From positions 6,572,001 to 6,636,000 of the forward strand of contig NZ_FMIB01000002.1 of NCBI RefSeq assembly GCF_900091475.1: a stretch of DNA of 64,000 bases, written 5' to 3'. The notes beneath the pieces are model-generated. The model was not told the origin of the DNA. It made no database searches and saw nothing but the letters and a program-made list of their open reading frames with translations. Every line of letters starts with the position of its first letter. Position 1 is the first letter of the stretch. Made by a program: the position numbers and the translations under genes. Origin of the DNA: Micromonospora chersina (GTDB lineage Bacteria; Actinomycetota; Actinomycetes; Mycobacteriales; Micromonosporaceae). Of this stretch, positions 45,234-64,000 are shown piece after piece.

Positions 45234-45249
45234 ATGTTATCGATAACAT
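45234..45249. promoter_or_regulatory. LacI-type operator before the SGNH esterase gene
   Basis: ATGTTATCGATAACAT is a perfect 16-base palindrome 134 bases upstream of the esterase start. It belongs to the operator family repeated through the arabinoxylan island and fits the LacI-family consensus with a central CG. Confidence 0.8.
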
Positions 45250-45383
45250 TTGGTCGGGGTCCCCGCCTCCGGGGCTGTGGCGCCAGCCGAGTCAGCGCTT
45301 GCTGGCCGCCTGCAGCGGCGGCAACGACCAGAAGTGGAGCCGGGGCTGACGCCCCGACCAGCGGCTACCGGGAAGGAACGATC

Positions 45384-46499
45384 ATGCGCACAACGGCACG
45401 ATGGCTCGCGGGGTGCGCCGCAACGGCCGTCCTGGTCACCGGCGCGGTGGCCCAGGCCGGCCCGGCCGGCGCGGAATCCAACGGTGGGGTACGGGTGATG
45501 CCGCTCGGTGACTCGATCACCGAGGGCACCCAGGTGCCCGGCGGCTACCGCATCGGCCTGTGGCAGCGCCTCGCCAACGGCCGGTACACCACCGACTTCG
45601 TCGGGTCCCAGTACAACGGGCCCGCCGCTCTCGGGGACCACGACCACGAGGGCCACCCCGGCTGGCGCATCGACCAGATCGACGCCAACATCGTCGGCTG
45701 GCTGAACACCTACCAGCCGCACACCGTTCTGCTGCACATCGGCACCAACGACATCCTGCAGAACTACAACGTCGCCGGCGCGCCGAACCGGCTCTCCGCG
45801 CTTATCGACCACATCACGAGCACCGCCCCCGGGGCCGAGGTGTTCGTCGCGCAGCTGACCCCGTTGGCCAACAGCGGCCAGGAATCAGCCGTGCGCGGCT
45901 TCAACGCGGCCATCCCGGGCATCGTGCAGAGCAAGGTGAACGCCGGCAGGCACGTCCACCTCGTCGACATGCACACCGCCGTGACGACGGCCGACCTGAT
46001 CGACGGCATCCATCCCACCGCCAACGGCTACGACAGGATGGCCGCGGTCTGGTACAGCGCCCTGCAGGCGGCGCCCGGCAGCATCGGCACCCCGGGTGGC
46101 GCCGGTGGCTCGGCCACCCAGGTCGTGGGCGCGCAGTCCGGGCGGTGCCTGGACGTCCCGAACGGCAGCACCACCAACGGCACCCAGGTGCAGTTGTACG
46201 ACTGCTGGGGCGGCACCATGCAGCGCTGGACATACACCTCGGCCAGGCAGTTGCAGGTGTACGGCACCAAGTGCCTGGACGCCGAGGGCGGTGCCGGCGC
46301 GAACGGCACCCGCGTGATCATCTGGGACTGCAACGGCGGCGCCAACCAGCAGTGGAACATCAACGCCGGCGGTACCATCAGCGGAGTCCAGTCGGGACGC
46401 TGCCTCGATGCGTACAACTTGGGCACCGCCAACGGGACGAGGATCGTTCTCTGGGACTGCCACGGCGGCGCCAACCAGCAGTGGAGCCTGCGCGGCTGA
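45384..46499 (+). CDS. Secreted SGNH esterase (CE3-like acetyl-xylan esterase) with RICIN domain
   Basis: A 371-residue exported protein. The signal ends PAGAESN; the SGNH hydrolase domain shows block I MPLGDSITEGTQ (Ser nucleophile), block III LLHIGTNDILQN and the catalytic DGIHPTANGYDRM. From about residue 245, a ricin-type beta-trefoil (CBM13) has three QxW repeats: MQRWTYT, NQQWNIN, NQQWSLRG. It probably removes acetyl groups from xylan. The lectin module is closely related to that of the GH54 enzyme at 59103. GGAAGGAAC precedes ATG 45384. Confidence 0.9.
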   Translation: MRTTARWLAGCAATAVLVTGAVAQAGPAGAESNGGVRVMPLGDSITEGTQVPGGYRIGLWQRLANGRYTTDFVGSQYNGPAALGDHDHEGHPGWRIDQIDANIVGWLNTYQPHTVLLHIGTNDILQNYNVAGAPNRLSALIDHITSTAPGAEVFVAQLTPLANSGQESAVRGFNAAIPGIVQSKVNAGRHVHLVDMHTAVTTADLIDGIHPTANGYDRMAAVWYSALQAAPGSIGTPGGAGGSATQVVGAQSGRCLDVPNGSTTNGTQVQLYDCWGGTMQRWTYTSARQLQVYGTKCLDAEGGAGANGTRVIIWDCNGGANQQWNINAGGTISGVQSGRCLDAYNLGTANGTRIVLWDCHGGANQQWSLRG

Positions 46500-46527
46500 C
46501 AGCTTCGCAGCGTGGCCGTACGAATGC

Positions 46528-46568
46528 GGATGTCCCGGTGCTCCCTGGGCGGGAGCACCGGGACATCC
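46528..46568. terminator. Strong bidirectional hairpin
   Basis: Perfect 18-base arms at 46528-46545 and 46551-46568 (beginning GGATGTCCCGGTG, loop TGGGC) lie between the convergent esterase and xylanase genes. Confidence 0.8.
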
Positions 46569-46630
46569 GGTTCAGCGGGCCGATCCTCAGGCGCCCGGGG
46601 CAGCGGCGTCGGCTGCGGGGAGCGCGCCCG

Positions 46631-48118
<1,488 letters not shown>

Positions 48119-48155
48119 TCACACCTTTCGGGTCATGGCTGGTGGCGGTGCGCGG

Positions 48156-50264
48156 TCAGGGGGTGGTCATGTCGAATGTGCGGACGGTGACGGCGCCACC
48201 GAGGGCCCGGGTGGCGTAGTTGAAGATCGCGTAGCGGTAGCCCATGAAGAACTGCCAGGCGTTGTTGAGGGTGAAGGCCGGGCCCAGGGCAGTGAAGGTG
48301 ACGCCGTCGGTGCTGTAGGAGAACCGGGCCTGCCGGCCGGTGCCCGGGCGGATGTCCGCGGTGGCCCGCAGCCAGATCCGGCCGCCGGAGACCGCGGCGG
48401 AGGCCGCCTCGGTGCCGATTCCGGTGGTGTTCCAGTTGCCGTCCATGGTCAGGCCGTTGACGAGCGTGACCCGGGTGGCGCCGCCGTCGCGTCGGACGCC
48501 GATCCACGCCGAGGAGTCACGCAGCATCGCCAGGCCGGACCGGTCGCCGTCGGCCATGGCCGAGTAGTCCAGCTCCACCGTCGCCGTGGACGTCGGTCCC
48601 TGGATGCGGTGCGTGAGCGTGTTGCGGGCCGCGTACAGGTCGTTGGTGACGGTCGCGGTCTGCAGGCGCAGCCCGCTGCCGGTCGACCACTTCGTGTTGT
48701 CCGGGTTGTGGTTCCACTCCCACTGCGGCCCGAGGCCGCTGCCGGTGAAGGTGTCCGCCCCGGTCATCGGGCGCACGGTCTTCGACGAGGCGGGGATGTT
48801 CGGCGCGGGGTAGGTGGCGCCCCAGGCCCCGTTGACGGTCTGCACGGTGGGCCACCCGTCGGCGGTCCACGTGATGGGCGCCAGGACCGGGACCCGGCCG
48901 CCCGGGTACGCGTCCTGGAAGGCCATGTAGTACCAGTCGCCGTTCTGGGTCTGCACGAGGCCGCCCTGGTGCGGCACGCCCCCACCGGCGATCGGGCCGG
49001 GCATGTTGAGCAGCACCTGGTGCATCTCGTACGGGCCGAACGGGCTGCTGGACCGCAGGACGTACTGGCCGTTGGCGGGGCGGGTCAGGAAGATGTAGTA
49101 GTAGCCGTTGCGCTTGTAGAACCGGGAGCCCTCGAGCGTCCCGACGCTGGACGGGGTGGTGAACACCTGCTGGGCGCGGACCTGGCTCAACCCGTCGGCG
49201 GACAGCTGGGCGACGCTGATGGTGCCGTTGCCGTAGGCGACGTACATCGTGTCGTTGTCGTCGACGAGCAGCCCGGTGTCGTAGTAGCAGTTGTTGATCT
49301 GCGAGCGTTTCTGCCAGGCGCCGTCGACGGCCGTCGAGGTGTACACGTACGTGCGGTTGAACTCGACGCAGCCGATCCAGTAGTAGGTGCTGTTGCTCCT
49401 GCGGTAGTTGAAGGCCGAGGCCCAGATGCCCTTGACGTACGCGCGACCGCCGGTGAGGTTGTACGCGCTGGAGCCGAAGTCGAGGCTCGGCACCGAGTGT
49501 CCGGCGTACTCCCAGTGCACCAGGTCGTACGAGCGCAGGATCGGTGCGCCGGGGGAGTAGTGCATGGTCGAGGCCGAGTAGTAGTAGGCGTCACCGACCC
49601 GGATGATGTCGCCGTCGGCGAAGTCCTGCCACACCACGGGGTTGGCGTAGGACGTCGCGGGCGGTGTCGACGTGGTGGGTGTCGGGTCGGTCGTGTCGAC
49701 CCGGACGAGTTGCCATTGCTGGTTGGCGCCGTTCCAGTCGGTGTACTGGACGATGTTGGCGCCGTCGGTGGTGGCGGCTCCCTGTACTTCGACGGCTTTG
49801 CCGCTGTTGCGGTTGAGGAGTCGGAGGTAGCCGCCGGAGTCGGCGAGTTGGAATTGTTGGTTGGTGGCGTTGGCGTCGGTCCATTGGATGAGGGGTGCGC
49901 CGTCGGTGGTGGCGCGGTTGGAGACGTCGAGGACCTTGCCGGAGTTGCGGGACTTGAGGCGGTAGTAGCCGCCGCCGGAGTCGACGAACTGCCATTGCTG
50001 GTTGGTGCCGTTGTTGCGGGTCCACTGGGTGATGCGGGCGCCGTCGGTGGTGGAGGCGCCGTAGACGTCGAGGGCCTTGCCGCTGTTGCGGTTGAGCAGC
50101 ACGTACCAGGCACTCGTGTCGACAGTCGCCGCGGCCGCCTCGGTGGCGGTCACCGCGGCGGCGGCGACGCTCGCCAGCAGCGTCACGGCGGCGGCGACGG
50201 CCAACCCCGGACGTCGGCCGCGTCGGTGTCCTGCGGTCGGTGGGGCCGTGCCGTTGATGGTCAT
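48156..50264 (-). CDS. Secreted GH43 beta-xylosidase/arabinofuranosidase with N-terminal RICIN domain
   Basis: A 702-residue exported enzyme. The signal ends ATEAAAAT; a RICIN domain (about residues 48-192) is followed by a TTDPTPTTSTPP linker. The GH43 five-bladed propeller has base Asp in DFADGDIIRVGDAYYYSAST, the modulating Asp in NCYYDTGLLVDDND and acid Glu in SVGTLEGSRFYK. A C-terminal concanavalin-like domain (about 500-700) matches the beta-xylosidase C2 type. It likely trims arabinose or xylose from arabinoxylan. An operator 36 bases upstream of its start controls this two-gene operon with the xylanase. Confidence 0.92.
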   Translation of the reverse strand: MTINGTAPPTAGHRRGRRPGLAVAAAVTLLASVAAAAVTATEAAAATVDTSAWYVLLNRNSGKALDVYGASTTDGARITQWTRNNGTNQQWQFVDSGGGYYRLKSRNSGKVLDVSNRATTDGAPLIQWTDANATNQQFQLADSGGYLRLLNRNSGKAVEVQGAATTDGANIVQYTDWNGANQQWQLVRVDTTDPTPTTSTPPATSYANPVVWQDFADGDIIRVGDAYYYSASTMHYSPGAPILRSYDLVHWEYAGHSVPSLDFGSSAYNLTGGRAYVKGIWASAFNYRRSNSTYYWIGCVEFNRTYVYTSTAVDGAWQKRSQINNCYYDTGLLVDDNDTMYVAYGNGTISVAQLSADGLSQVRAQQVFTTPSSVGTLEGSRFYKRNGYYYIFLTRPANGQYVLRSSSPFGPYEMHQVLLNMPGPIAGGGVPHQGGLVQTQNGDWYYMAFQDAYPGGRVPVLAPITWTADGWPTVQTVNGAWGATYPAPNIPASSKTVRPMTGADTFTGSGLGPQWEWNHNPDNTKWSTGSGLRLQTATVTNDLYAARNTLTHRIQGPTSTATVELDYSAMADGDRSGLAMLRDSSAWIGVRRDGGATRVTLVNGLTMDGNWNTTGIGTEAASAAVSGGRIWLRATADIRPGTGRQARFSYSTDGVTFTALGPAFTLNNAWQFFMGYRYAIFNYATRALGGAVTVRTFDMTTP
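49699..50123 (-). repeat. 425-bp identical repeat, copy 2 (RICIN module of GH43)
   Basis: This is the identical partner of 46638-47062, 3061 bases away in direct orientation. The ends of identity coincide with the module boundaries, which suggests recent module duplication or gene conversion. Confidence 0.95.
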
Positions 50265-50299
50265 GGGCGTGTTCCCTCCGGTGGGGAGTCGCTACCGGC

Positions 50300-50313
50300 T
50301 GTTAGCGCTAACA
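50300..50313. promoter_or_regulatory. LacI-type operator between GH43 operon and sigma-AbfB gene
   Basis: TGTTAGCGCTAACA is a perfect palindrome in a 373-base divergent gap. It lies close to the GH43 start. The rest of the gap (about 50390-50560) is AT-richer and presumably holds the sigma-gene promoter; no gene is supported there. Confidence 0.85.
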
Positions 50314-50637
50314 ACAGGCGGTCGACATGCGGTGTGGGTGGTGGTGGTCGGGGGATCCCGAGGCGTGCCGGGCGGCGCCGAATGCACGGACAACGGGGCC
50401 GTCAACGTTGCCAGAATGTTTCTCCGCATTCAAGAGCTAAGGCGTTTGTCGATGCGTTGCGTCCCGTGCGGAGATCCACCACCACGCTGTTCCGGCGGGT
50501 CGACTTGTCGCCGTCATGCCGCATAACGTTTTTCGGCCGCCAATTCTCGTCGCGCATGAGGCCGCGGATCAGCGGGGCTCGCACCCCGGCCGCCCCTTCT
50601 TGACGCGGCCGCCCGGATCGAGTTGTGTGACTGCGAC

Positions 50638-52236
50638 GTGAAGATGCGAGCTACCGGCGCCAACGAGGCGGACCTCGTGGTCGCGGCGCAGGCGGGTGAC
50701 CGGCGGGCCATGGACGAGTTGATCGCGGCCGGCCTGCCGCTGGTCTACGCCCTCGCGCACCGCGCGCTCGGCGGGCACCCGGACACCGACGACGTCGTCC
50801 AGGACACCATGCTGCGTGCCGTCCGCCGGCTCCCGGAGCTGCACGCGCCGGAGAGCTTCCGGCCCTGGTTGGCGGCGATCGCCCTGCGCCAGCTCAGCAC
50901 TCTCCTGCACCGCCGGCAGGTCGCCGCCCGACGGGCCGCCCCCCTGGACGAGGCCGCCGGGCTGCCGGATGCCGGCGCCGCCTTCGAGGACCTGGCGACG
51001 CTGCGCCTGGAGCTGTCCGGGCAGCGCCGACAGCTCGTCCGGGCGAGTCGATGGCTCGACCCGGACGACCGGGCGTTGCTGTCCCTGTGGTGGCTGGAGA
51101 CGGCCGGCGAACTGACCCGGACCGACGTGGCGGCGGCCCTGGCCGTCAGCGTCGCGCACGCGGCGGTGCGGGTGCAGCGGATGCGCCATCAACTCGACGT
51201 GAGCCGCGGCCTGGTCGCCGCGCTGGAGTCCGGACCGAGGTGCGCCGGGCTGGAAGCCGCGGCGGCGGGGTGGGACGGCGTCCCGAGTCCGTTGTGGCGC
51301 AAGCGGTTGGCCCGGCACACCCGGTCCTGCGGCCGCTGCGCACGCGCCGACAGTGGCATGATCGCCCCGGAACGGCTGCTGCTGGGCGTCGGCCTGCTCC
51401 CCGTTCCGGTCGGGCTCGCCGCCGTGCTGCTCGGCCGGGGCGCGCTCGGCGCGGCCGCCCCTTCCACGGCCGCCCTGTCGGGTGCGATCGGCGGCGGATC
51501 CGGCGGTGGTGTCGGCGCGGGCGCCAAGGCCGGACTGCTCGCCCAACTGCTCCAGGCGGTGGTGGCGCACCCCGTCGCCGCGACAGTGGTCGCCGGTGCG
51601 GTCGCCACCGGCGCCGCGGCCACCGTGACGGTCCTGCCCACGCACCCGCCACCCCCGGCGTCCGCGCCGGTCGCGGCACCGACCTCGCCGTCCGGGCCGC
51701 GTGCCGTCCCGTCCTCGCCGCCGGCGGCCGCGGTGCCCGAGCCGGCACCCCGGACGACTCCGGCCGCCGGACCCTCGGCCGGCCGTACCGCGTCCCTGAC
51801 CGCGGGACGGCCCCTGTCGCTGGAGTCGGCAAACGGAAACGGACGGTACGTCGCCACCGTCGACGGTCTCGGCGTCCTGATGCCGGTCGGTCCGGACAGC
51901 ACCGACGCGGCGCGCCGCCAGGCGACCTTCACGGTGCTCGCGGGCCTGGCCGACCCCCGCTGCTTCTCCTTCCGTGCCGGGGACGGGCGGTACCTGCGGC
52001 ACTCGTCCTGGCGGCTGCGGCTCAGCCCCGCCGACGGGACCGAGCTGTTCCGTGGTGACGCCACCTTCTGCGCGCGCGACGGCGCGACCGCCTCCTCCAC
52101 GGCGCTGGAAGCGTCGAACTACCCCGGCTGGTTCCTGCGGCACCGCGATGGGCAGTTGTGGGTGGACCAGGCGGACGGCACCCCCGCCTTCCGCGCCGAC
52201 AGCTCATTCCGAATCCGGCCCGCCCTGGCGGGCTGA
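50638..52236 (+). CDS. Sigma-70-family factor fused to membrane segments and an AbfB domain
   Basis: About 532 residues with an unusual architecture. Residues ~10-110 form sigma region 2 (YALAHRALGGHPDTDDVVQD), and ~115-190 a region-4-like domain (AALAVSVAHAAVRVQRMRHQ). An H-x3-C-x2-C motif (HTRSCGRCA, about 227) resembles zinc anti-sigma sites. Hydrophobic helices follow at about 246-266 (LLPVPVGLAAVLLG) and 307-334, then a Pro/Ala-rich linker, then an AbfB/CBM42-type domain from about 386 (RYVATVDGLGVLMPVG, GRYLRHSSWRLRL, EASNYPGWFLRHRDGQLWVD). AbfB modules bind arabinofuranose side chains. Placed amid arabinoxylan enzymes, it could sense arabinan and drive transcription. Starts at TTG 50623 or ATG 50644 are also possible. 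Confidence 0.85.
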   Translation: MKMRATGANEADLVVAAQAGDRRAMDELIAAGLPLVYALAHRALGGHPDTDDVVQDTMLRAVRRLPELHAPESFRPWLAAIALRQLSTLLHRRQVAARRAAPLDEAAGLPDAGAAFEDLATLRLELSGQRRQLVRASRWLDPDDRALLSLWWLETAGELTRTDVAAALAVSVAHAAVRVQRMRHQLDVSRGLVAALESGPRCAGLEAAAAGWDGVPSPLWRKRLARHTRSCGRCARADSGMIAPERLLLGVGLLPVPVGLAAVLLGRGALGAAAPSTAALSGAIGGGSGGGVGAGAKAGLLAQLLQAVVAHPVAATVVAGAVATGAAATVTVLPTHPPPPASAPVAAPTSPSGPRAVPSSPPAAAVPEPAPRTTPAAGPSAGRTASLTAGRPLSLESANGNGRYVATVDGLGVLMPVGPDSTDAARRQATFTVLAGLADPRCFSFRAGDGRYLRHSSWRLRLSPADGTELFRGDATFCARDGATASSTALEASNYPGWFLRHRDGQLWVDQADGTPAFRADSSFRIRPALAG

Positions 52237-52356
52237 CCGGCTCCGCCTGACCCCACCCAGGCGCCGGTGATAACAGTTTTCGGCATTACGGTTCCGGTCC
52301 TGGTGAGTGACACACCCGAACAATTTACATAGACGCAATTCATTGAGGATGGCGTC

Positions 52357-52370
52357 TGTTATCGCTAACA
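52357..52370. promoter_or_regulatory. LacI-type operator before the feruloyl-esterase-like gene
   Basis: TGTTATCGCTAACA matches the island consensus. It lies in a 352-base gap in which the stretch 52261-52375 is AT-rich and likely holds the promoter. A half-site-like GATAACAG at about 52268 is also present. The remainder to 52588 shows nothing else. Confidence 0.8.
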
Positions 52371-52588
52371 TGCGTGCTGCGGGACTGAGCGGGACGCTGG
52401 GAGCCGGGCGATGCGGCGCCCGCTCAGCCCGGGGGCGGCCCGGCTCGGCCTGCCCGCTGCAGCCGCGAGCCCCCGCACCTGCCTGCCCGCAGGTCACCTC
52501 GACGTGCTGACGCCACCACCGGCACCGGCACACACACGCGGCGCGCGTCCACCCTGCCGGCGCGTGACCCGCAGCGAAGGAGTGGTTC

Positions 52589-53959
52589 ATGAATGTCAAC
52601 GGTCCGGCCCGTTCCACCGCTCCACACGGGCATCGCCGGCGGTCGCCACTGGCCGCGGCAACGGCGGCGCTCGTCGCGGCCGGCGCACTCGTCACGGTGA
52701 ACGCGGCGCCCGCCTCGGCGGCGACGGTGGACACAAACGCCTCGTACGTCCTGGTCAACCGCAACAGCGGCAAGGCGCTGGACGTGTACGGCGCGTCGAC
52801 GGCCGACGGCGCGCGGGTCACCCAGTGGACCCGCAACAACGGCGCCAACCAGCAGTGGCAGTTCGTGGACTCCGGTGGCGGCTACTACCGACTGAGGTCC
52901 CGCGGGTCCGGCAAGGTCCTGGACGTCTCGGGCGGCTCCACCGCCGACGGCGCACCCGTCGTGCAGTGGAGCGACCACAACGGCGCCAACCAGCAGTTCC
53001 GGTTGGCCGACTCGTCCGGCGGCTACGTACGCCTCATCAACCGCAACAGCGGCAAGGCCGTCGAGGTCCAGAACGCCGCGACCACCGACGGCGCCAACGT
53101 CGTGCAGTACACGGACTGGAGCGGCGCCAACCAACAGTGGGAACTGGTCATGCTGACCGGCGGCGGCACCGGTGGGGGCTGTGGCAGGCCCCCGGGTCTG
53201 TCCAACGGCAGCCACACGATCCTGAGCGGCGGCAAGAGCCGGAGCTACATCCTGCGCCTCCCCGGCAACTACGACAGCAACCGCCAGTACCGGTTGATCT
53301 TCGCGTTCCACTGGCGCGGTGGCACGGCCAACGAGGTCGACTCGGGGGGCACGAGCGGCGCCGCCTGGTCCTACTACGGCCAGCTGGAGCAGTCGAACAA
53401 CAGCGCCATCCTCGTCGCCCCGCAGGGCCTCGGCAACGGCTGGGCCAACTCCGGCGGCGAGGACGTCACCTTCGTCGATGACATGATCAGGCAGATCGAG
53501 GGTGCCCTCTGCGTCAACACCGGGCAGCTCTTCGCCCTCGGATTCAGCTGGGGCGGCGGCATGAGCTACGCGCTGGCGTGCGCCCGGGCGAACGTCTTCC
53601 GGGCCGTCGCGGTCTTCAGCGGCGCGCAGATCAGCGGGTGCAGCGGCGGCACCCAGCCCGTCGCGTACTTCGGGCTGCACGGCATCGGCGACACGGTGCT
53701 CAACATCGCGCAGGGCCGGGCGCTCCGTGACACCTTCGTCCGGAACAACGGCTGCACGCCGCAGAGCCCACCGGAGCCCTCGGCCGGCAGTCGCACCCAC
53801 GTCACCACCGCCTACTCCGGCTGCCGTGCCGGCTACCCCGTGCAGTGGGCCGCGTTCGACAACGGCCACATGCCGGGCCCGGTGGACGGGACCTACGCCG
53901 AAAGCGGCGTCACGACGTGGACCAAGGGCGAGGTGTGGAGATTCTTCGCCCAGTTCTGA
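52589..53959 (+). CDS. Secreted CE1-type (feruloyl/acetyl-xylan) esterase with RICIN domain
   Basis: A 456-residue exported enzyme. The signal ends APASAAT; an N-terminal RICIN/CBM13 domain (about residues 46-190) is related to, but diverged from, the xylanase module. A GGGTGGGC linker leads to an alpha/beta hydrolase of the polyhydroxybutyrate-depolymerase/FaeC group: LRLPGNYDSNRQYRLIFAFH, nucleophile elbow LGFSWGGGMSYALAC, and a likely catalytic His in DNGHMPGPVDG. It would release ferulic or acetyl groups from arabinoxylan. The GH43 gene follows after 50 bases, probably in one operon. Confidence 0.88.
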   Translation: MNVNGPARSTAPHGHRRRSPLAAATAALVAAGALVTVNAAPASAATVDTNASYVLVNRNSGKALDVYGASTADGARVTQWTRNNGANQQWQFVDSGGGYYRLRSRGSGKVLDVSGGSTADGAPVVQWSDHNGANQQFRLADSSGGYVRLINRNSGKAVEVQNAATTDGANVVQYTDWSGANQQWELVMLTGGGTGGGCGRPPGLSNGSHTILSGGKSRSYILRLPGNYDSNRQYRLIFAFHWRGGTANEVDSGGTSGAAWSYYGQLEQSNNSAILVAPQGLGNGWANSGGEDVTFVDDMIRQIEGALCVNTGQLFALGFSWGGGMSYALACARANVFRAVAVFSGAQISGCSGGTQPVAYFGLHGIGDTVLNIAQGRALRDTFVRNNGCTPQSPPEPSAGSRTHVTTAYSGCRAGYPVQWAAFDNGHMPGPVDGTYAESGVTTWTKGEVWRFFAQF

Positions 53960-54009
53960 CGCCCTGCCGCCCCACATCAGACAGCAACCCGCAGCCACTG
54001 GAGGCAGAC

Positions 54010-55845
54010 ATGAGGGTGTTCCCTCCACTTCCCGGGAGAGCCCGCATCCGGCGGGTCGTCGCCTGGGTCGCGGCGGTGCTCTGCGCCGCCGCTCTCGTCC
54101 CCGGCGTGGCCAGGGCGGACAACCCCATCGTCCAGCACATCTACACCGCCGACCCGGCTCCGCTCGTGCACAACGGCCGGGTGTACCTCTACACGGGCCA
54201 CGACGAGGACGGCTCGACCTGGTTCACCATGAAGGAGTGGCGGGTCTGGTCGTCGGCCGACATGGTGAACTGGACCGACCACGGTTCCCCGCTCAACCTC
54301 GCCAGCTTCAGCTGGGCCAGCGCCGACGCCTGGGCCGGCCAGGTCGTCGCCCGCAACGGCAGGTTCTACTGGTACGTACCCATGACCGTCCGGGCGACCG
54401 GCGCGAAGGGCATCGGGGTGGCGGTGGCCGACAGCCCGACCGGTCCCTTCCGGGACGCCATCGGCCGGCCGCTGGTCTCCAACGGTGAGATCGACCCGAC
54501 CGTCTTCGTCGACAGCGACGGACAGGCCTACCTGTACTGGGGCAACCCCAACCTCTGGTACGTGAAGCTGAACGCCGACATGATCTCCTACTCGGGCAGT
54601 CCGACGAAGATCCCGCTCACCACCGCCGGATTCGGCACCCGCACCGGCGACGCGAACCGACCGACGCTGTTCGAGGAAGGCCCCTGGGTCTACAAGCGGA
54701 ACGGCCTCTACTACAACGTCTTCGCGGCGAAGTGCTGCTCGGAGTTCATCGCCTACTCGACGGCGCCCGGCCCCACCGGACCGTGGACCTACCGCGGGAC
54801 GGTCATGCCGACCCAGGGCAGCAGCTTCACCAACCACCCCGGCATCGTCGACTTCAACGGCGGGTCGTACTTCTTCTACCACAACGGCGCGTTGCCGGGC
54901 GGCGGCGGCTTCACGCGGTCGGTCGCCGTCGAGAAGTTCTCCTACAACGCCGACGGCTCGATCCCGACCATCTCCATGACCAGCGCCGGGGCGCCCCAGA
55001 TCGCTGCCCTCAACCCGTACAACCGGCAGGAGGCCGAGACGATCGCCTGGGAGTCGGGTATCGAGACCGAGGTCGCCAGCGAGGGCGGGATGGACGTCGG
55101 CTGGATCGAGAACGGCGACTACATCAAGGTCAAGGGTGTCGACTTCGGTGCGGGGGCGAACTCGTTCACCGCGCGGGTGGCCTCGGCGACCAGCGGCGGC
55201 ACCATCGAACTGCGCCTCGACGGCACCACCGGCCCGGTGGTGGGACGGTGCGCCGTCCCGGGCACGGGCGGCTGGCAGACGTGGGCGAACACCTCCTGCG
55301 CCGTGACCGGCGCCGCCGGCACCCACGACCTCTACCTGCGGTTCACCGGCGGCAGCGGCAACCTCTTCAACGTCAACTGGTGGCAGTTCGGCGGGAGCGG
55401 CGGGGGCAACCTCATCGCCAACGGTGACGCGGAGAGCGGCACGTCGGGCTGGGGGGTCATGGGTGCCGGAACCCTGTCGTCGAACGCCGCGGTCGCCCAC
55501 GGCGGCGCGGCGTCGTTGTCGGTCAGCGGGCGTACGGCGTCGTGGAACGGTCCCAGTCAGGACGTGACCTCGAAGCTCACCAACGGCCGGAGCTACACCA
55601 CCACCCTCTGGGTGCGGAGCCAGAGCGGGACGCCGACCGTGAAGGCGACCCTGGCCCTGACGGCCAACGGCACGACGAACTACGTCTCCCTGACGCCGGG
55701 AACCGCGGTGAACCCCGACGGCTGGACGAGGCTCACCGGCACGGCGACGGTGTCCTGGAGCGGAACGCTCTCCGGAGCCACCTTCTACGTGGAGACGGCG
55801 TCGGGCACCGACGGCTTCTCCGTCGACGACCTCTCGCTGCAGTAG
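54010..55845 (+). CDS. Secreted GH43 arabinoxylan hydrolase with CBM6 and CBM4/9-like domains
   Basis: A 611-residue exported enzyme. The signal ends GVARAD. The GH43 propeller (to about 330) has base Asp in YTADPAPLVHNGRVYLYTGH, Asp in EIDPTVFVDSDGQAYLYWG and acid Glu in LFEEGPWVYKRNGLYY. A CBM6 (about 335-465: NRQEAETIAWESGIETE, GWIENGDYIKVKGVDFG) and a C-terminal CBM4/9-like sandwich (about 472-611, NLIANGDAESGTSGW) follow. It is the only glycosidase of the island without a RICIN module. It probably removes arabinose from doubly substituted xylose or acts as a xylosidase. Confidence 0.9.
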   Translation: MRVFPPLPGRARIRRVVAWVAAVLCAAALVPGVARADNPIVQHIYTADPAPLVHNGRVYLYTGHDEDGSTWFTMKEWRVWSSADMVNWTDHGSPLNLASFSWASADAWAGQVVARNGRFYWYVPMTVRATGAKGIGVAVADSPTGPFRDAIGRPLVSNGEIDPTVFVDSDGQAYLYWGNPNLWYVKLNADMISYSGSPTKIPLTTAGFGTRTGDANRPTLFEEGPWVYKRNGLYYNVFAAKCCSEFIAYSTAPGPTGPWTYRGTVMPTQGSSFTNHPGIVDFNGGSYFFYHNGALPGGGGFTRSVAVEKFSYNADGSIPTISMTSAGAPQIAALNPYNRQEAETIAWESGIETEVASEGGMDVGWIENGDYIKVKGVDFGAGANSFTARVASATSGGTIELRLDGTTGPVVGRCAVPGTGGWQTWANTSCAVTGAAGTHDLYLRFTGGSGNLFNVNWWQFGGSGGGNLIANGDAESGTSGWGVMGAGTLSSNAAVAHGGAASLSVSGRTASWNGPSQDVTSKLTNGRSYTTTLWVRSQSGTPTVKATLALTANGTTNYVSLTPGTAVNPDGWTRLTGTATVSWSGTLSGATFYVETASGTDGFSVDDLSLQ

Positions 55846-55868
55846 CGCGCACCGTGCGGAGAGCATCG

Positions 55869-56080
55869 ATGTTAGCGACAACATCGACGCCAACCGGCTG
55901 CACCACCGGCTGCCACATGGCGTGCTGTTTCCAGAAAGTTGCGGGTTGACTATCGGAATGTTATCGCTCACAGTCGATGGACAGGGACGGCGACGCCAGG
56001 GGCTTACCGGGCAGGCCCGCTTCGTCCGACCTCGGATCAGGCGCGGGCCGGCACACGCGGGCCAGCTGTCAGCGCTGACA
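55869..56080. promoter_or_regulatory. Three LacI-type operators before the GH62 gene
   Basis: ATGTTAGCGACAACAT (55869-55884), TGTTATCGCTCACA (55959-55972) and TGTCAGCGCTGACA (56067-56080) lie in the 311-base gap. The middle one directly follows TTGACT (55946-55951), a good -35 box, so the operator would sit between -35 and -10 and block RNA polymerase. Confidence 0.7.
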
Positions 56081-56156
56081 ACCCAGCCTGTACGTCCGCG
56101 CCGCGGTGCGCCCATCGTCGGCGGACCGTTCGGCTCTTGGTCACAGAAGGAGGATC

Positions 56157-57680
56157 ATGTCTGCCTTTGGTACGGCTCCCTCGGTCGCGCCGCCGTCACG
56201 GCGGCGTGGATGGCTGCCGCGGCTGGTCGCCGCCGGCGTGGCAGCGGTGGTGGTCGGCGGCGCCGCCGCGGTGGCGGTCTCGACGCCCGCCGCCGCGGCG
56301 ACGGTCGACACGAGCGCGTGGTACGTGCTGGTCAACCGCAACAGCGGCAAGGCCCTGGACGTGTACAACCTGGCCACGAATGACGGCGCCCGGATCGTGC
56401 AGTGGACGCGGAACAACGGCAACCAGCAGCAGTGGCAGTTCGTCGACTCGGGCGGCGGCTACTACCGGCTGCGGTCGCGGCTGTCCGGCAAGGTGCTCGA
56501 CGTCTACAACTGGTCGACCGCCAACGGCGCCAACATCGTGCAGTGGACCGACGGCAACCAGGCCAACCAGCAGTTCCGGCTCGCCGACTCCGACAGCGGC
56601 TACGTCCGGTTGATCAACCGGAACAGCAACAAGGTGGTGGAGGTGCAGGGCGCCTCGACCGCCGACGGCGGCAGCATCGTGCAGTACGACGACTGGAACG
56701 GCGCCAACCAGCAGTGGCAGCTCGTCCGCGTCGACGGCGGGAGCAACCCCACCACGCCGCCGCCGGGCGGCTCGTGCACCCTCCCGTCGACGTACCGCTG
56801 GTCGTCGACGGGCTCGCTGGCGAACCCGAGGTCGGGGTGGGTCTCGCTCAAGGACTTCACAAACGTCGTGCACAACGGCCGGCACCTGGTCTACGCCACG
56901 ACGCACGACACCGGGTCGTCGTGGGGCTCGATGAACTTCAGCCCGTTCACGAACTGGTCCGACATGGCCTCGGCCAGCCAGAACGCGATGCCGTTCTCCG
57001 CTGTCGCGCCCACGCTCTTCTACTTCGCCCCGAAGAACATCTGGGTGCTCGCCTACCAGTGGGGCGGGACCGCCTTCTCCTACCGGACGTCGAGCGACCC
57101 CACCAACGTGAACGGGTGGTCGTCGCAGCAGACGCTCTTCACCGGCAGCATCTCCGGCTCCGGCACGGGACCGATCGACCAGACGCTCATCGGTGACAGC
57201 CAGAACATGTACCTGTTCTTCGCCGGGGACAACGGCAAGATCTACCGGGCCAGCATGCCGATCGGGAACTTCCCGGGCAACTTCGGTTCGAGCTACACCA
57301 CGATCATGAGCGACTCGACGAACAACCTGTTCGAAGGCGTCCAGGTCTACAAGATCCAGGGCCAGAACCAGTACCTCATGCTCGTCGAGGCGATCGGCTC
57401 GCAGGGGCGCTACTTCCGCTCGTTCACGGCCACCAGCCTGGGCGGTTCGTGGACGCCGCAGGCCGCCACCGAGAGCAATCCCTTCGCCGGCAAGGCGAAC
57501 AGCGGCGCCACCTGGACCAACGACATCAGCCACGGCGACCTGGTGCGCAGCAACCCCGATCAGACCATGACCGTCGATCCCTGCAACCTGCAGTTGCTCT
57601 ACCAGGGTCGGGCCACCAACTCCGGCGGGGACTACGGCCTCCTGCCGTACCGGCCGGGTGTGCTGACGTTGCAGCGCTAG
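56157..57680 (+). CDS. Secreted GH62 alpha-L-arabinofuranosidase with RICIN domain
   Basis: A 507-residue exported enzyme that removes single arabinofuranose side chains from arabinoxylan. The signal ends TPAAAAT; the N-terminal RICIN domain (about residues 50-195) has three QQW/QQF repeats. The GH62 propeller has base Asp in [20 protein letters not shown], Asp in [20 protein letters not shown] and acid Glu in [14 protein letters not shown]. The ribosome site GAAGGAGG precedes ATG 56157. Confidence 0.93.
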
Positions 57681-57746
57681 TGGCGTGACGCGGGTCCGAC
57701 CCGGATCGGCCCTCGGAAGGCTCGCGGGCGGGACCGGGTGGAACCG

Positions 57747-57785
57747 GAGCGGGCGGGCTCGGTGCGAGGCCGAGCCCGCCCGCTC
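57747..57785 (+). terminator. Strong hairpin after GH62 gene
   Basis: A perfect 16-base stem (GAGCGGGCGGGCTCGG, 57747-57762, paired with 57770-57785) has a 7-base loop. It lies in the 305-base gap before the LacI gene; a -10-like TACACT at 57850-57855 is the only promoter hint there. Confidence 0.75.
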
Positions 57786-57985
57786 GCGCCTGAGGCACAT
57801 CGACCACCGGGGCGGGCCGTGCCTCGGCGGGCGGGACGCGGTCTGGGCGTACACTGGCGCTGGTCCTGTGCCGGGCTGCCCTGAGGGTTCAGCCGGGGTG
57901 GGTGCAGGGCCGCGGATGGCGCGTCCCGCGGCTCCGGCGTCGACCGCCGGGCGTGGTCGAGGGCTTGGCGGGGAGGGTGGGTGCC

Positions 57986-58987
57986 GTGCGGGGTCCCGCG
58001 ATGACGGATGTGGCCCGCCTTGCCGGGGTCTCCCATCAGACCGTGTCGCGGGTGCTCAACGGGCACCCGAACGTCCGGGAGCAGACCCGGCTGCGGGTGC
58101 AGGCGGCGATCGCCGAGTTGGGCTACCGGCCCAACCGGGCCGCTCGCGCGCTGGTGACGGGCCGGTCGCAGGTCATCGGCGTGGTCGCGCAGAACACCAC
58201 CCTGTACGGCCCGGCCTCGCTGCTGGCGGCACTGGAGCAGACCGCCGCCGAGGAGGGCTTCGCGGTCAGCGTGGGCAGTGTCCGGGACCTGGACCAGGTC
58301 TCCATCTCCGACGCGGTCGAGCGGCACCTGGCGCACCGGGTCGCGGGGATCGTCGTCATCGCGCCCGTCGAGTCGGCCGGTGAGGCGCTGGAGCACCTGC
58401 CGAAGGACGTCCCCCTGGTGACCGTCGACGGCGACCCCCGGCGCCCGGTGCCGCTGGTGACTGTCGACCAGGTGGCGGGCGCGCGGGAGGCCACACGGCA
58501 CCTGCTGGAGGCCGGTCACCGCACGGTGTGGCACGTGTCGGGGCCCGCCGACTGGTTCGACAGCGCCGGGCGGATCGAGGGCTGGCGGGAGGCGTTGGAG
58601 GCGGCGGGCGCCGAGGTGCCGCCGCTCGTGCCGGCGGACTGGTCGGCGGCGTCAGGCTACCGGTGCGGGCAGATGCTGGCGCGGATGCCCGAGGTGACGG
58701 CGGTCTTCACGGCCAACGACCACCTGGCACTGGGCGTGTTGCGGGCCCTGCACGAGTTCGGCCGCCGGGTGCCGGACGAGATCAGTGTGGTGGGCTTCGA
58801 CGACGTGCCGGAGGCGGCGTACTTCATTCCGCCGCTGACCACCGTCCGGCCGGACTTCGCCGCCGTGGCCCGGGCCAGCCTGGACCTGCTGCTCGCGCAG
58901 TTCGAGACCGATGCGGTCGGCGAGCTGCGGCAGACCATCGCACCGACACTGATCACCCGGCAGAGCGTCGCCGCCCCACCCCGGTGA
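57986..58987 (+). CDS. LacI family transcriptional regulator of the arabinoxylan island
   Basis: A 333-residue repressor. The N-terminal LacI HTH and hinge read MTDVARLAGVSHQTVSRVLN and PNRAARALVTGRSQVIGVV. The sugar-binding domain covers about residues 65-330 with the DNA/effector landmarks VTAVFTANDHLALGVLRALH and EISVVGFDDVPEAAYF. GTG 57986 is chosen because GGGAGGG lies eight bases upstream; ATG 58001 is the alternative. It sits centrally among genes that carry the TGTTAKCGMTAACA operator and is the only LacI protein in view, so it is the likely repressor, relieved by arabinose or an arabino-oligosaccharide. Confidence 0.92.
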   Translation: MRGPAMTDVARLAGVSHQTVSRVLNGHPNVREQTRLRVQAAIAELGYRPNRAARALVTGRSQVIGVVAQNTTLYGPASLLAALEQTAAEEGFAVSVGSVRDLDQVSISDAVERHLAHRVAGIVVIAPVESAGEALEHLPKDVPLVTVDGDPRRPVPLVTVDQVAGAREATRHLLEAGHRTVWHVSGPADWFDSAGRIEGWREALEAAGAEVPPLVPADWSAASGYRCGQMLARMPEVTAVFTANDHLALGVLRALHEFGRRVPDEISVVGFDDVPEAAYFIPPLTTVRPDFAAVARASLDLLLAQFETDAVGELRQTIAPTLITRQSVAAPPR

Positions 58988-59102
58988 CCGCCGGCCGGGC
59001 TGGTCCACCGCCGGACCGGCGCGGCGGTGCCGCCTGGCTGCCCCACCCCGCCGATCCGCGGTCTGATCCGGTGCGCCGACGCCGGCCCGGCCGGCGGCAC
59101 CG

Positions 59103-60741
<1,639 letters not shown>

Positions 60742-60882
60742 GCAGCTCGCACCATTCCGGCTCGCCGCGGCCCCACCCCGATGCCGGGGTCGCGCACGCC
60801 GGCCGCCCCGTCCGGGTCCGCGCCCTCCGCTGCCACCGTCACCGGGCGACGGCGATCCCTCGCTGACCCCGAAAGGACTCAG

Positions 60883-63213
60883 ATGGGAACCCAGGACCTG
60901 CCCATCCACCGTCGGACCCTGCTGCGCGCGGCCGGCGTCGTGCCCGCAGCCGTGGCTGTCGGCGCCACGACGCTTCCCGTGTCCCGGGCCGAGGCGGCCG
61001 TCGCTCCCGCCCGCCCGGACATCGGTGTCTCGGCGTACCCGTTCCCGCCGGGCCAGGTGCAGCTCACCGCCAGCAGGTGGATGGACAACCAGAATCGAAC
61101 GCTGAACTACCTGCGCTTCGTCGACGCCGACCGGATGCTGTACAACTTCCGCGCCAACCACCGGCTCTCCACCAACGGCGCCGCGGCGACCGGCGGCTGG
61201 GACGCGCCGAACTTCCCCTTCCGCACCCACATGCAGGGACACCTGCTAACGGCCTGGGCCCAGGCCGCGGCCGTGCTTGGCGACACCACGTGCCGGGACA
61301 AGGCCACCTACTTCGTCGGCGAGCTGGCCAGATGCCAGGCGAACAACGGCGCGGCCGGCTTCACCGCCGGCTACCTCTCCGGCTTTCCCGAGTCGGATTT
61401 CACCAGCCTGGAATCGGGCTCGTTGTCCAACGGCAACGTGCCCTACTACGTCATCCACAAGATCATGGCCGGCCTTCTCGACGTCTGGCGGTACCTCGGC
61501 AGCACGCAGGCCCGGGACGTGCTGCTCAAGCTCGCCGGTTGGGTGGACTGGCGCACCGGGCGGCTGAGCTACAGCCAGATGCAGTCGGTGTTGAACGTCG
61601 AGTTCGGTGGGATGAACGCGGTGCTGACCGACCTCTACCAGCAGACCGGCGACGGCCGCTGGCTGACCACCGCGCAGCGCTTCGACCACGCTGCGGTCTT
61701 CAACCCCCTGGCGGGGAACCAGGACCAGCTCAACGGGCTGCACGCGAACACGCAGGTGCCGAAGTGGGTCGGCGCGGCCCGGGAGTACAAGGCCACCGGG
61801 ACCACCCGGTACCGCGACATCGCCGTCAACGCCTGGGCCATCACCGTCGGGGCGCACACCTACGCCATCGGCGGGAACAGCCAGGCCGAGCACTTCCGCG
61901 CGCCGAACGCGATCGCCGGGTACCTCAACCGCGACACCTGCGAGCACTGCAACAGCTACAACATGCTCAAGCTCACCCGGGAGCTGTTCACCCTCAATCC
62001 CGACCGGGTCGACCTGGTCGACTTCTACGAGCGGACGCTGCTCAACCACGTCATCGGGGCGCAGAACCCGGCCGACAGCCACGGCCACATCACCTACTTC
62101 ACCCCCCTCAACCCGGGTGGCCGCCGAGGTGTCGGGCCGGCGTGGGGTGGCGGCACCTGGAGCACCGACTACACCTCGTTCTGGTGCTGCCAGGGGACGG
62201 GGGTCGAGGCCAACACCGCGCTCACGGACTCGATCTACTTCTGTTCCGGCACGACCCTGTTCGTGAACCTGTTCATGCCGTCGGTGCTGACCTGGACCGA
62301 GCGGGGCATCACCGTCACGCAGACCACGAGCTACCCGGCGAGTGACACGACCACCCTGACGGTCACCGGCGCCGTCTCCGGGACGTGGGCGATGCGCCTG
62401 CGCATCCCGGCCTGGGCCAGTGGGGCCACGATCAGTGTCAACGGCGTGGCACAGAACCTCGCACCCGCACCCGGCACCTACGCCACCCTCAGCCGGTCCT
62501 GGACCTCCGGCGACACGGTCACCCTCCGGCTGCCCATGCGGGTGGTCCTGCGCGCCGCCAACGACAACGCCAGCGTCGCCGCTGTCACCTACGGCCCGGT
62601 CGTGCTGGCCGGCAACTACGGCAACACGAGCCTGTCGTCGCTGCCGTCGCTGACCGCCTCCTCGGTCACCCGGTCCGGCGGCTCGTCGCTCGCCTTCACC
62701 GCCACCGCCAACGGTGCCGCGGTCAACCTGGCCCCCTTCTACGACGCGCAGGGATACAACTACACCGTCTACTGGAGTCTCGCCGGGGGTTCCCCTCCGA
62801 CCGGCTACGTGAAGATCGCGAATGTGACGACGGGTCTTGTGGTGGACAGTGGCGGGAGTGTCGGCTCGGGGTCGGTGGTCAAGCAGTGGAGCGATGTCAC
62901 AAGCGTGAATCTGCAGTGGCAGATGGTCGACGTGGGGGGCGGCTTCCACCGGATCGTGAATCGGGCCAACGGCATGGTGGTCGACAGTTGGGGCAACGCG
63001 GCCAACGGGGCGGCCGTGCTCCAGGCGCCGTGGAACGGCGGTGACAACCAGCAGTGGCGGTTGACCAGCGTGGGCGGCGGTCGCTACCAGATCGTCAACC
63101 GGGGCACCGGCACGGCCCTCGACGGGATGGGCAACGCCACCGTCGGGTCGACGGTCTGCATGTGGGCGCCCAACGGGAACACCAACAACCACTGGACCAT
63201 CACCGCCGTCTGA
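60883..63213 (+). CDS. Secreted GH127 beta-L-arabinofuranosidase with RICIN-like domain
   Basis: A 776-residue enzyme with a Tat-type signal (HRRTLLRAAGVVPAAVAVGA). The GH127 (alpha/alpha)6 barrel carries the zinc-thiolate site: Glu and Cys in DTCEHCNSYNMLKLTREL and the Cys pair with nucleophile in SFWCCQGTGVEANT. A beta-sandwich follows to about residue 640. The C-terminus (about 645-776) has ricin-like repeats (LQWQMVDVGGG, NQQWRLTSVGGG, NHWTITAV). It releases beta-linked arabinofuranose, as in extensin-type glycans, complementing the alpha-arabinofuranosidases. GAAAGGA precedes ATG 60883. Confidence 0.92.
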   Translation: MGTQDLPIHRRTLLRAAGVVPAAVAVGATTLPVSRAEAAVAPARPDIGVSAYPFPPGQVQLTASRWMDNQNRTLNYLRFVDADRMLYNFRANHRLSTNGAAATGGWDAPNFPFRTHMQGHLLTAWAQAAAVLGDTTCRDKATYFVGELARCQANNGAAGFTAGYLSGFPESDFTSLESGSLSNGNVPYYVIHKIMAGLLDVWRYLGSTQARDVLLKLAGWVDWRTGRLSYSQMQSVLNVEFGGMNAVLTDLYQQTGDGRWLTTAQRFDHAAVFNPLAGNQDQLNGLHANTQVPKWVGAAREYKATGTTRYRDIAVNAWAITVGAHTYAIGGNSQAEHFRAPNAIAGYLNRDTCEHCNSYNMLKLTRELFTLNPDRVDLVDFYERTLLNHVIGAQNPADSHGHITYFTPLNPGGRRGVGPAWGGGTWSTDYTSFWCCQGTGVEANTALTDSIYFCSGTTLFVNLFMPSVLTWTERGITVTQTTSYPASDTTTLTVTGAVSGTWAMRLRIPAWASGATISVNGVAQNLAPAPGTYATLSRSWTSGDTVTLRLPMRVVLRAANDNASVAAVTYGPVVLAGNYGNTSLSSLPSLTASSVTRSGGSSLAFTATANGAAVNLAPFYDAQGYNYTVYWSLAGGSPPTGYVKIANVTTGLVVDSGGSVGSGSVVKQWSDVTSVNLQWQMVDVGGGFHRIVNRANGMVVDSWGNAANGAAVLQAPWNGGDNQQWRLTSVGGGRYQIVNRGTGTALDGMGNATVGSTVCMWAPNGNTNNHWTITAV

Positions 63214-63221
63214 GCGAGCCC

Positions 63222-63609: not shown

Positions 63610-63637
63610 ATGTGAGCCACGGCACGCGGAGGTGGAG

Positions 63638-64000
63638 ATGACGGGTGTGGACGGACCGGGGGACCGGTACGTCGTCGGGGTCGACTACGGGACGTTGTCG
63701 GGCCGGGCGTTGGTGGTCCGTGTCGGTGACGGCGCCGAGCTGGGCACCGCGGTCCACGAGTACCGGCACGGGGTGATCGAGTCCTCGCTCCCAGGCACGG
63801 CGGCGCCGCTCCCACCGGACTGGGCGCTCCAGGACCCCGAGGACTACCGGGACGTGCTGCGCCACGCGGTGCCCGCCGCCGTGGCCGCCGCGGGCATCGA
63901 CCCGGCGCGGGTGATCGGCATCGCCACCGACTTCACGGCCTGCACCGTGCTGCCCACCCTGGCCGACGGCACGCCGCTCTGCGAGGTGCCGGAGCTGCGC
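63638..64000 (+). CDS. araB: L-ribulokinase, N-terminal part (window edge)
   Basis: An FGGY-family kinase. 121 residues are visible, starting MTGVDGPGDRYVVGVDYGTL with the phosphate-1 motif VGVDYGTLSGRALVVRV, then WALQDPEDYRDVLRHAV and VIGIATDFTACTVLP, which are characteristic of AraB (ribulokinase, phosphorylating L-ribulose to L-ribulose-5-phosphate). GGAGGTGGAG precedes ATG 63638. It links the extracellular release of arabinose by the preceding enzymes to intracellular catabolism; araD and araA may follow outside the window. Confidence 0.92.
   Translation, partial: MTGVDGPGDRYVVGVDYGTLSGRALVVRVGDGAELGTAVHEYRHGVIESSLPGTAAPLPPDWALQDPEDYRDVLRHAVPAAVAAAGIDPARVIGIATDFTACTVLPTLADGTPLCEVPELR

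What the first reader, a model, noticed from the sequence alone, without database searches (positions are those of the whole stretch)
50638..52236. Transmembrane sigma factor carrying an arabinofuranose-binding (AbfB) module inside an arabinoxylan locus
One polypeptide combines sigma regions 2 and 4, an H-x3-C-x2-C site, hydrophobic helices and a C-terminal AbfB domain. AbfB otherwise occurs on arabinofuranosidases, yet here no enzyme of the locus carries it, only the sigma factor does. It suggests a one-protein sensor in which polysaccharide binding frees or activates a sigma factor without a separate anti-sigma protein. Whether AbfB is outside depends on whether one or two helices cross the membrane; with two it would be cytoplasmic and might sense imported arabino-oligosaccharides.
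Basis: partly seen in the sequence, partly recalled or inferred. Interest (0 to 1): 0.85.

Follow-up and report, generated by a model that had tools for sequence, protein, structure and literature searches.

The report
Membrane sigma factor with arabinose-binding module
One bacterial protein joins a gene switch, its own built-in brake, a membrane anchor and a module that should grip arabinose on plant fibre; relatives in many genomes suggest it turns on the plant-fibre-digesting genes beside it, a new version of a sensor type already proposed but hardly tested.

Summary
The gene at about 50638-52236 encodes an ECF sigma factor, a fused zinc-type anti-sigma segment (C207, H232, C236, C239), one likely membrane helix, a proline-rich linker and an AbfB/CBM42 domain (E 2e-42). 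It lies among GH10, GH43, GH62, GH54 and GH127 genes. AbfB was found once in the genome, on this protein; even the GH54 enzyme carries CBM13. Relatives show one common chassis with exchangeable outer modules: of 130 distinct proteins collected, 58 carry AbfB, 46 a glycosidase-like core, 15 CAP. Arabinoxylan-enzyme genes lie within 10 kb of 43 of 58 AbfB versions against 5 of 67 others, though shared ancestry is not excluded. The arabinose-contacting His and Asp of the CBM42 beta pocket are kept in 58 of 58. Sister subfamilies favour one membrane crossing, so AbfB outside; AbfB types alone do not decide. The idea is not new in kind: ECF52 (SCO4117) and ECF53 are membrane-anchored sigma factors with carbohydrate-binding or hydrolase modules, and the anti-sigma RsgI5 carries CBM42. 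Kinship with ECF52 is distant (20-30% identity); ECF53 membership could not be tested. Not shown: sugar binding, proteolytic release, target promoters. A LacI-type regulator with nine operator-like sites is a competing or second controller.

The parts
50638..52236 (+). Sigma-AbfB sensor gene (start TTG 50623, GTG 50638 or ATG 50644)
50719..50916 (+). Sigma region 2 (residues 33-98)
   Evidence: Pfam PF04542 7.1e-11
50971..51228 (+). Linker end and sigma region 4 (about residues 117-202)
   Evidence: TIGR02937 covers 29-191; helices in AF2 model
51241..51339 (+). Fused zinc-type anti-sigma segment: C207, H232, C236, C239
   Evidence: these four columns invariant in 23 of 23 rows; aligned to the ECF52 segment by hhalign
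51376..51432 (+). Hydrophobic segment A (252-270), broken by PVP; probably not a membrane crossing
51547..51636 (+). Likely single membrane helix (within residues 309-338)
   Evidence: AF2 has low confidence here
51637..51789 (+). Proline-rich linker (339-389)
   Evidence: sequence
51817..52215 (+). AbfB/CBM42 beta-trefoil (399-531); beta pocket H460/D479, gamma H507/D526, Cys447/Cys483
45234..46499 (+). GDSL esterase with CBM13
46631..48115 (-). GH10 xylanase with CBM13
48156..50264 (-). GH43 with CBM13, divergent from the sigma gene
52589..53959 (+). Esterase (PHB-depolymerase-like) with CBM13
53845..55845 (+). GH43-CBM6-CBM4_9 (true start probably after 53959)
56106..57680 (+). GH62 arabinofuranosidase with CBM13
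57902..58987 (+). LacI-family regulator
59103..60584 (-). GH54 catalytic domain with CBM13 instead of AbfB
60727..63213 (+). GH127 beta-L-arabinofuranosidase-like with CBM13
63632..64000 (+). L-ribulokinase (cut by window end)
   Evidence: TIGR01234 2.9e-40, under the cut-off for a whole protein because it is cut
50300..50313 (.). LacI-type operator-like palindrome TGTTAGCGCTAACA between GH43 and the sigma gene (one of nine sites, 45235-63609)

Best explanation
A membrane-anchored one-protein sensor. Shown by sequence: an ECF sigma factor, a fused segment with the four usual zinc ligands of anti-sigma factors, a hydrophobic stretch fit for a membrane helix, a proline-rich spacer and a CBM42 domain. 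Inferred: the fused segment holds sigma silent at the membrane; CBM42 lies outside and binds arabinofuranosyl side chains of arabinoxylan or arabinan, mainly in its beta pocket; binding exposes the protein to cutting, most likely regulated intramembrane proteolysis as proposed for ECF52 and reported for RsgI; the freed sigma directs RNA polymerase to the neighbouring GH43/GH10/GH62/GH54/GH127 and esterase genes. A LacI-type repressor answering to imported sugar probably adds a second layer.
For: Domains. Zinc ligands invariant in 23 of 23; profile match to ECF52 across sigma and the cysteine segment. Beta-pocket His and Asp in 58 of 58, +3 aromatic (W, F or Y) in 54 of 58, gamma His 39 and Asp 46 of 58, alpha pocket without the His in 58 of 58; AtAbf43C contacts arabinose through His, +3 Tyr and +19 Asp of its beta pocket (passages of PMC12493170). 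Linkage: enzyme genes within 10 kb of 43 of 58 AbfB types against 5 of 67 other types, Fisher p 4.9e-15; in an unguided neighbour count over 56 AbfB loci the most recurrent families are glycan genes and LacI, while glycosidase-core loci share a non-glycan neighbourhood. Topology: basic residues before the last helix exceed those after it in 15 of 15 CAP and 38 of 46 glycosidase-core relatives. Precedent: SCO4117, IutY, RsgI.
Against: No experiment. AbfB types themselves show no charge bias across the helix (17 more before, 15 equal, 26 fewer, of 58), and the AF2 model is unsure there. The cysteine segment matches no Pfam zinc-finger model and no solved anti-sigma by sequence. The linkage cannot be separated from shared ancestry: only 1-3 independent pairs, and a single origin of the AbfB types is not rejected (p-AU 0.101). 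15 of 58 AbfB types have none of the tested enzyme genes within 10 kb. No promoter motif shared by the sigma gene and the enzymes was found. Nine LacI-type sites could account for local control alone. SCO4117 controls development and secondary metabolism rather than a glycan locus.
Confidence: 0.6

Rival explanations
1. The sensor is real but its targets lie elsewhere; the local enzymes are controlled by the LacI-type repressor, and AbfB serves to sense or hold plant material for some other programme, as SCO4117 governs development.
For: Nine operator-like palindromes, 0 expected, all within 45235-63609; a LacI gene in the locus and LacI-cluster genes in 11 of 56 AbfB loci; no shared sigma promoter found; SCO4117 has a broad developmental role.
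Against: Enzyme linkage in 43 of 58 AbfB types against 5 of 67 others, although the arrangement of genes differs between loci.
Confidence: 0.22
2. Two membrane crossings: AbfB is cytoplasmic and senses imported arabino-oligosaccharides.
For: Segment A is hydrophobic (mean Kyte-Doolittle of 1.6 or more in 54 of 58 AbfB types) and AbfB types have no clear charge bias.
Against: Segment A holds charged residues in 11 of 58 AbfB, 25 of 46 glycosidase-core and 11 of 15 CAP types and is followed by a basic linker in most of the latter two; two distant relatives have, by eye, a charged segment A and an arginine run before the one clear helix; AF2 breaks segment A into helices of 5 and 9 residues, at low confidence; Cys447/Cys483 in 57 of 58; the modules swapped onto the chassis are usually secreted ones (modules; that they are usually secreted is recalled).
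Confidence: 0.12
3. Signalling without proteolysis: sugar binding changes the fold or oligomer of the fused anti-sigma segment and frees sigma while it stays at the membrane.
For: Conformational control is described for ECF41 and CorE-type sigma factors; no cleavage site was identified here.
Against: IutY, named in the review as the only sigma fusion of this kind characterised by experiment, is cut by Prc and RseP, and RsgI is cut too.
Confidence: 0.06

Closest known systems
ECF52 sigma factors (SCO4117 of Streptomyces coelicolor)
   Same: Sigma, zinc-finger anti-sigma segment, membrane helix, proline-rich spacer, outer carbohydrate-binding domain in one protein; profile alignment runs through sigma and the H-x3-C-x2-C segment.
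   Different: Outer module is NPCBM, not AbfB. Sigma plus anti-sigma of three SCO4117-like proteins is 20-30% identical to chassis members in pairings of 200 columns or more, and the window protein reaches 26% with one of the three (E 0.04), whereas the 127 chassis rows are 48% or more identical to the window protein, 123 of them 51% or more. SCO4117 affects development and antibiotics.
ECF53 sigma factors
   Same: Described in reviews as actinobacterial fusions with a zinc finger and 1-2 helices, some with glycosyl hydrolase or carbohydrate-binding domains.
   Different: No ECF53 sequence was available, so identity is untested; no AbfB member was found in the papers searched.
SigI/RsgI system of Clostridium thermocellum (RsgI5)
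   Same: Outer CBM42 as polysaccharide sensor of a sigma pathway; the CBM42 fold matches the RsgI5 domain at TM 0.88, rmsd 1.6.
   Different: There sigma and anti-sigma are two proteins, sigma is of the SigI type, and RsgI has an autocleaving outer domain.
IutY (ECF243)
   Same: Sigma fused to its membrane anti-sigma, freed by proteolysis (passage in PMC8999054).
   Different: Gram-negative iron signalling by a siderophore; no sugar module.

Membership tests
ECF sigma factor | Regions 2 and 4 only, TIGR02937 | tested here: met
   (1.2e-15 over 29-191)
ECF52 | Zinc finger + helix + proline-rich stretch + carbohydrate-binding module | tested here: met
   by motif and sequence
ECF52 | Close sigma-domain kinship with SCO4117-like proteins | tested here: not met
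   20-30% to three SCO4117-like proteins against 48% or more within the chassis; the three form their own branch
ECF53 | Group sigma-domain kinship | not testable with these tools
   no reference sequence held; the papers by Huang 2015, Pinto 2019 and Casas-Pastor 2021 are not held
ECF53 | Fused zinc finger, 1-2 helices, hydrolase or carbohydrate-binding module | tested here: met
   definition; features
Zinc anti-sigma (ZAS) domain | H-x3-C-x2-C plus an upstream fourth ligand (definition recalled) | tested here: met
   C207, H232, C236, C239 invariant in 23 of 23
Zinc anti-sigma (ZAS) domain | Match to Pfam zf-HC2 or to a solved anti-sigma | tested here: not met
   no Pfam hit at E 1; no PDB sequence hit at E 10 with the 21-row profile
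CBM42 (AbfB) | Beta-trefoil with arabinose-contacting His/aromatic/Asp | tested here: met
CBM42 (AbfB) | Binding of arabinofuranose | not testable with these tools
   needs binding assay
SigI/RsgI | Separate RsgI with autocleaving outer domain | tested here: not met
   sigma and sensor are one chain; no RsgI domain

The most novel reading that the evidence does not exclude
The window protein is one member of a plug-in sensor family of Micromonosporaceae and Streptomycetaceae: a constant sigma/anti-sigma/membrane chassis onto which evolution has set different outer modules (CBM42, a glycosidase-like core, CAP, a beta-helix, others), each reporting a different outside material. The CBM42 version is a self-contained arabinoxylan switch that travels with its target enzymes, and a LacI repressor adds a check on imported sugar.
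Probability: 0.45. Interest if true: 0.75.

Novelty: new variant of a known kind. Interest (0 to 1): 0.6.

Why it matters
A review states that experimental validation of the hydrolase and carbohydrate-binding domains of ECF52/ECF53 proteins has yet to be performed (section 6 of PMC10766802). Here the predicted ligand (arabinofuranose), the binding residues and the predicted targets (the adjacent genes) are all named, and the same chassis with other modules gives ready controls. That makes the question directly testable, and would add a one-gene arabinoxylan sensor for use in strain building.

Tried and rejected
ECF52 membership: rejected on sigma kinship, though distant homology is clear.

Common promoter motif: the conserved block CTTGACNCGGC upstream of close relatives occurs exactly only at 50599 in the window, and 8 sites with up to one mismatch are no more than the 9.7 expected by chance; TGACNGYGAYG is too loose (62 matches, 33 expected); the palindrome GAATG-N8-CATTC occurs once; TTGCCAGAATGTTTC has one exact site and one with three mismatches. 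No sigma promoter is claimed.

First neighbour count (40 of 58 against 5 of 68) used stop-to-stop frames and dropped touching genes (GH54 of L014, GH62 of L189); corrected. Five of 130 proteins were left out there because only about 3.4 kb was held. The 100 regions were taken from the capped list of best matches, and the seed alignment is rich in AbfB types, so the sensor proportions are not population frequencies. Of the 5 non-AbfB proteins with enzymes nearby, L135 has an AbfB stretch in another frame and L011 ends at a contig edge while another contig of the same strain (L020) carries the AbfB end; L016, L155 and L161 remain.

An operator search by general palindrome found 6 of 59 upstream regions against 1.3 expected; GTGAGCGTTCAC, chosen after seeing the sequences, was found in 11 of 59 against 0.05.

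Independent-pairs test: too few pairs. The 50 listed of 529 Foldseek matches in the PDB are CBM42 and other beta-trefoil proteins (as far as their titles tell), none sigma or anti-sigma. A zinc-segment profile found nothing in the PDB.

Papers: passages only of PMC5826349, PMC8999054, PMC6116742, PMC12203970, PMC4711584 and PMC12493170; passages and section 6 of PMC10766802; other papers were seen in search listings only.

Full report
What is there. Pfam finds sigma region 2 (7.1e-11) and AbfB (2.2e-42); NCBIfam finds sigma70-ECF over 29-191. From the GTG start the protein has five cysteines: C207, C236 and C239, which with H232 look like a zinc-type anti-sigma segment, and C447 and C483 in AbfB. 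C207, H232, C236 and C239 are invariant in 23 of 23 aligned relatives, but neither Pfam nor a PDB sequence search with a 21-row profile names the segment. Two hydrophobic stretches follow (252-270 and about 309-338), then a proline-rich linker (339-389) and AbfB (399-531). An AF2 model (mean pLDDT 74.2, pTM 0.38, 25 sequences) gives confident sigma, cysteine-segment and AbfB parts; 269-382 in its own numbering is almost wholly under pLDDT 50. The AbfB part matches CBM42 structures, among them that of RsgI5 (9fnk, TM 0.88, rmsd 1.6).

Surroundings. On both sides lie GDSL esterase, GH10, GH43, an esterase, GH43-CBM6-CBM4_9, GH62, a LacI-family regulator, GH54, GH127 and L-ribulokinase. The search of the 6.68-Mb genome found a single AbfB, the one on the sigma factor; the GH54 enzyme, a family whose solved member carries AbfB (1wd3), has CBM13 here. 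The two flanking genes, GH43 and the esterase, are not anti-sigma genes. The palindrome TGTTANCGNTAACA occurs nine times in the 64-kb window with up to one mismatch (four exact), all between 45235 and 63609, with none expected from shuffles; that it is the operator of the local LacI protein is inference.

Relatives. A scan of named genomes returned 33 loci. Pfam was run on 20 of their proteins: 10 have AbfB (Micromonospora, Asanoa, Paractinoplanes, Actinoplanes and Streptomyces prunicolor), 6 CAP (Streptomyces, Kitasatospora), 1 a glycosidase core (PF11790, L018) and 3 no outer-module hit (L016, L028, L030). A profile of region 4 plus the cysteine segment (A2) matched 206 of 300 genomes of the window's family at E 1e-15, some only at 1e-16 to 1e-19 and so perhaps more distant groups, but only 6 of 149 drawn from the phylum at E 1e-20, the window's own genome included. 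From 100 regions of 9-20 kb (99 distinct) and the earlier loci I collected 162 chassis hits, 130 distinct: 58 AbfB, 46 glycosidase core, 15 CAP, 3 of an unnamed type, 8 others. Types were assigned by BLAST clustering, AbfB also by phmmer; Pfam confirms the glycosidase core in the 7 of 46 scanned and a beta-helix in L172.

Linkage test. A GH10-, GH43-, GH54-, GH62- or GH127-like gene lies within 10 kb of 43 of 58 AbfB types, 1 of 41 glycosidase-core types, 0 of 15 CAP types, 0 of 3 and 4 of 8 others: 43 of 58 against 5 of 67, Fisher p 4.9e-15; in the regions fetched by coordinates alone 35 of 48 against 3 of 46. Two of the five exceptions are themselves broken or cut AbfB types. Without choosing families beforehand, the families recurring around 56 AbfB loci are a CBM13-bearing group that includes GH62, GH10 and GDSL (39), GH43 (20), the second GH43 (13), LacI (11), GH27-like (11; one such protein, of L019, named by Pfam), esterase (8), then an ABC protein (7) and GH127 (6); around 41 glycosidase-core loci they are non-glycan genes at a common address, e.g. 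22 of 41 share one flavin-type protein (name by eye). Against this: 15 of 58 AbfB types have no listed enzyme. Of the ones examined by Pfam, L015 has GH95 and GH2, L121 a rhamnogalacturonan-lyase-like protein, L174 a BNR_4 protein, L120 two CBM13 proteins of which one has a 3-keto-disaccharide hydrolase domain, and L013 nothing clear; several others show no glycan gene next door by eye. AbfB types are clustered on the sigma tree (5 changes for 58 rows), so only 1-3 independent comparisons exist and ancestry cannot be excluded; a single origin is not rejected (p-AU 0.101).

Ligand site. In AtAbf43C, H70, Y73 and D89 of the beta pocket contact arabinose, and the alpha pocket is taken to be non-functional (passages of PMC12493170). 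The spacing His, +3 aromatic, +19 Asp recurs here: His and Asp are present in 58 of 58 AbfB types, the aromatic in 54 of 58; the gamma pocket keeps His in 39 and Asp in 46 of 58; the alpha pocket has the His in none and the Asp in 2. So the module is very probably a working arabinofuranose binder, though no assay exists.

Topology. In AbfB types the charges do not decide (17 of 58 have more basic residues before than after the last helix, 15 equal, 26 fewer). In sister types they do: 15 of 15 CAP and 38 of 46 glycosidase-core proteins have more before it, and segment A carries charged residues in 11 of 15 and 25 of 46 (126 of 130 proteins measured). Two distant relatives have, by eye, a charged segment A and an arginine run before the one clear helix. 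The model breaks segment A around the conserved PVP, at low confidence. With the AbfB cysteine pair in 57 of 58, one crossing with AbfB outside is the better reading, at about 0.8.

Mechanism. Best reading: AbfB holds arabinosylated polysaccharide outside; this leads, probably by site-1 then site-2 proteolysis, to release of the sigma factor, which transcribes the local genes. Shown are the parts and the linkage; binding, release and targets are inferred. No promoter motif common to the sigma gene and the enzymes could be found. LacI-like sites also lie upstream of other AbfB sigma genes: 10 of 59 have the window's palindrome and 11 of 59 GTGAGCGTTCAC with up to one mismatch, the latter motif picked after inspection. 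A double control by LacI and sigma is plausible.

What is known. SCO4117 (ECF52) joins sigma, zinc finger, helix, proline-rich region and a carbohydrate-binding module, and a protease-release model was proposed for it (passages). Reviews describe ECF48/52/53 as such fusions and say some ECF52 and ECF53 members have predicted hydrolase and carbohydrate-binding domains, not yet validated (passages of PMC8999054; section 6 of PMC10766802). RsgI5 has CBM42 and other RsgI proteins other sensors (passages). Three SCO4117-like proteins with NPCBM fetched here (L203, L206, L207) share 20-30% with chassis members where 200 columns or more align, and the window protein aligns over length with one of them only (26%, E 0.04); the 127 chassis rows share 48% or more with the window protein. 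Yet a profile comparison aligns sigma, the cysteine segment and segment A throughout (96.5% probability). So this is a distant sister group built the same way. Whether it is ECF53 could not be tested, as the defining papers are not held. Searches of the held library for a sigma factor with AbfB or arabinofuranosidase B found one unrelated paper; subscription papers are not covered.

Verdict. A real feature, correctly seen; a new variant of a known kind, valuable because ligand and targets are both predicted.

Noticed in passing
window 45235-63609: Nine palindromes TGTTANCGNTAACA (up to 1 mismatch, 0 expected) among the arabinoxylan genes, with a LacI-family gene at 57902-58987 as likely owner.
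   Followed up: partly
window 59103-60584: GH54 arabinofuranosidase catalytic domain fused to CBM13 instead of AbfB, while the only AbfB found in the genome sits on the sigma factor.
   Followed up: yes
window 50397-50450 and 50599-50660: Blocks conserved in close relatives between GH43 and the start of the sigma gene (one holds the inverted repeat GAATG-N8-CATTC); function unknown.
   Followed up: partly
L106, L107, L109, L112 and other glycosidase-core loci: Chassis with a PF11790-type glycosidase core, many at a common chromosomal address in Micromonosporaceae, not beside the glycan genes tested.
   Followed up: partly
L172 9473-11569; L161 9414-11123; L030 3883-5074: Rare chassis members: a right-handed beta-helix module (Pfam), a lysozyme-like one (by eye, no Pfam hit) and an FYYPWY, GH99-like one (by eye).
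   Followed up: partly
L152 and L169: Two AbfB-type sigma genes near each other in one locus, possible duplications.
   Followed up: no
L016 9989-10708: Chassis copy that ends soon after the cysteine motif, without helix or outer module, beside a GH10 gene.
   Followed up: no
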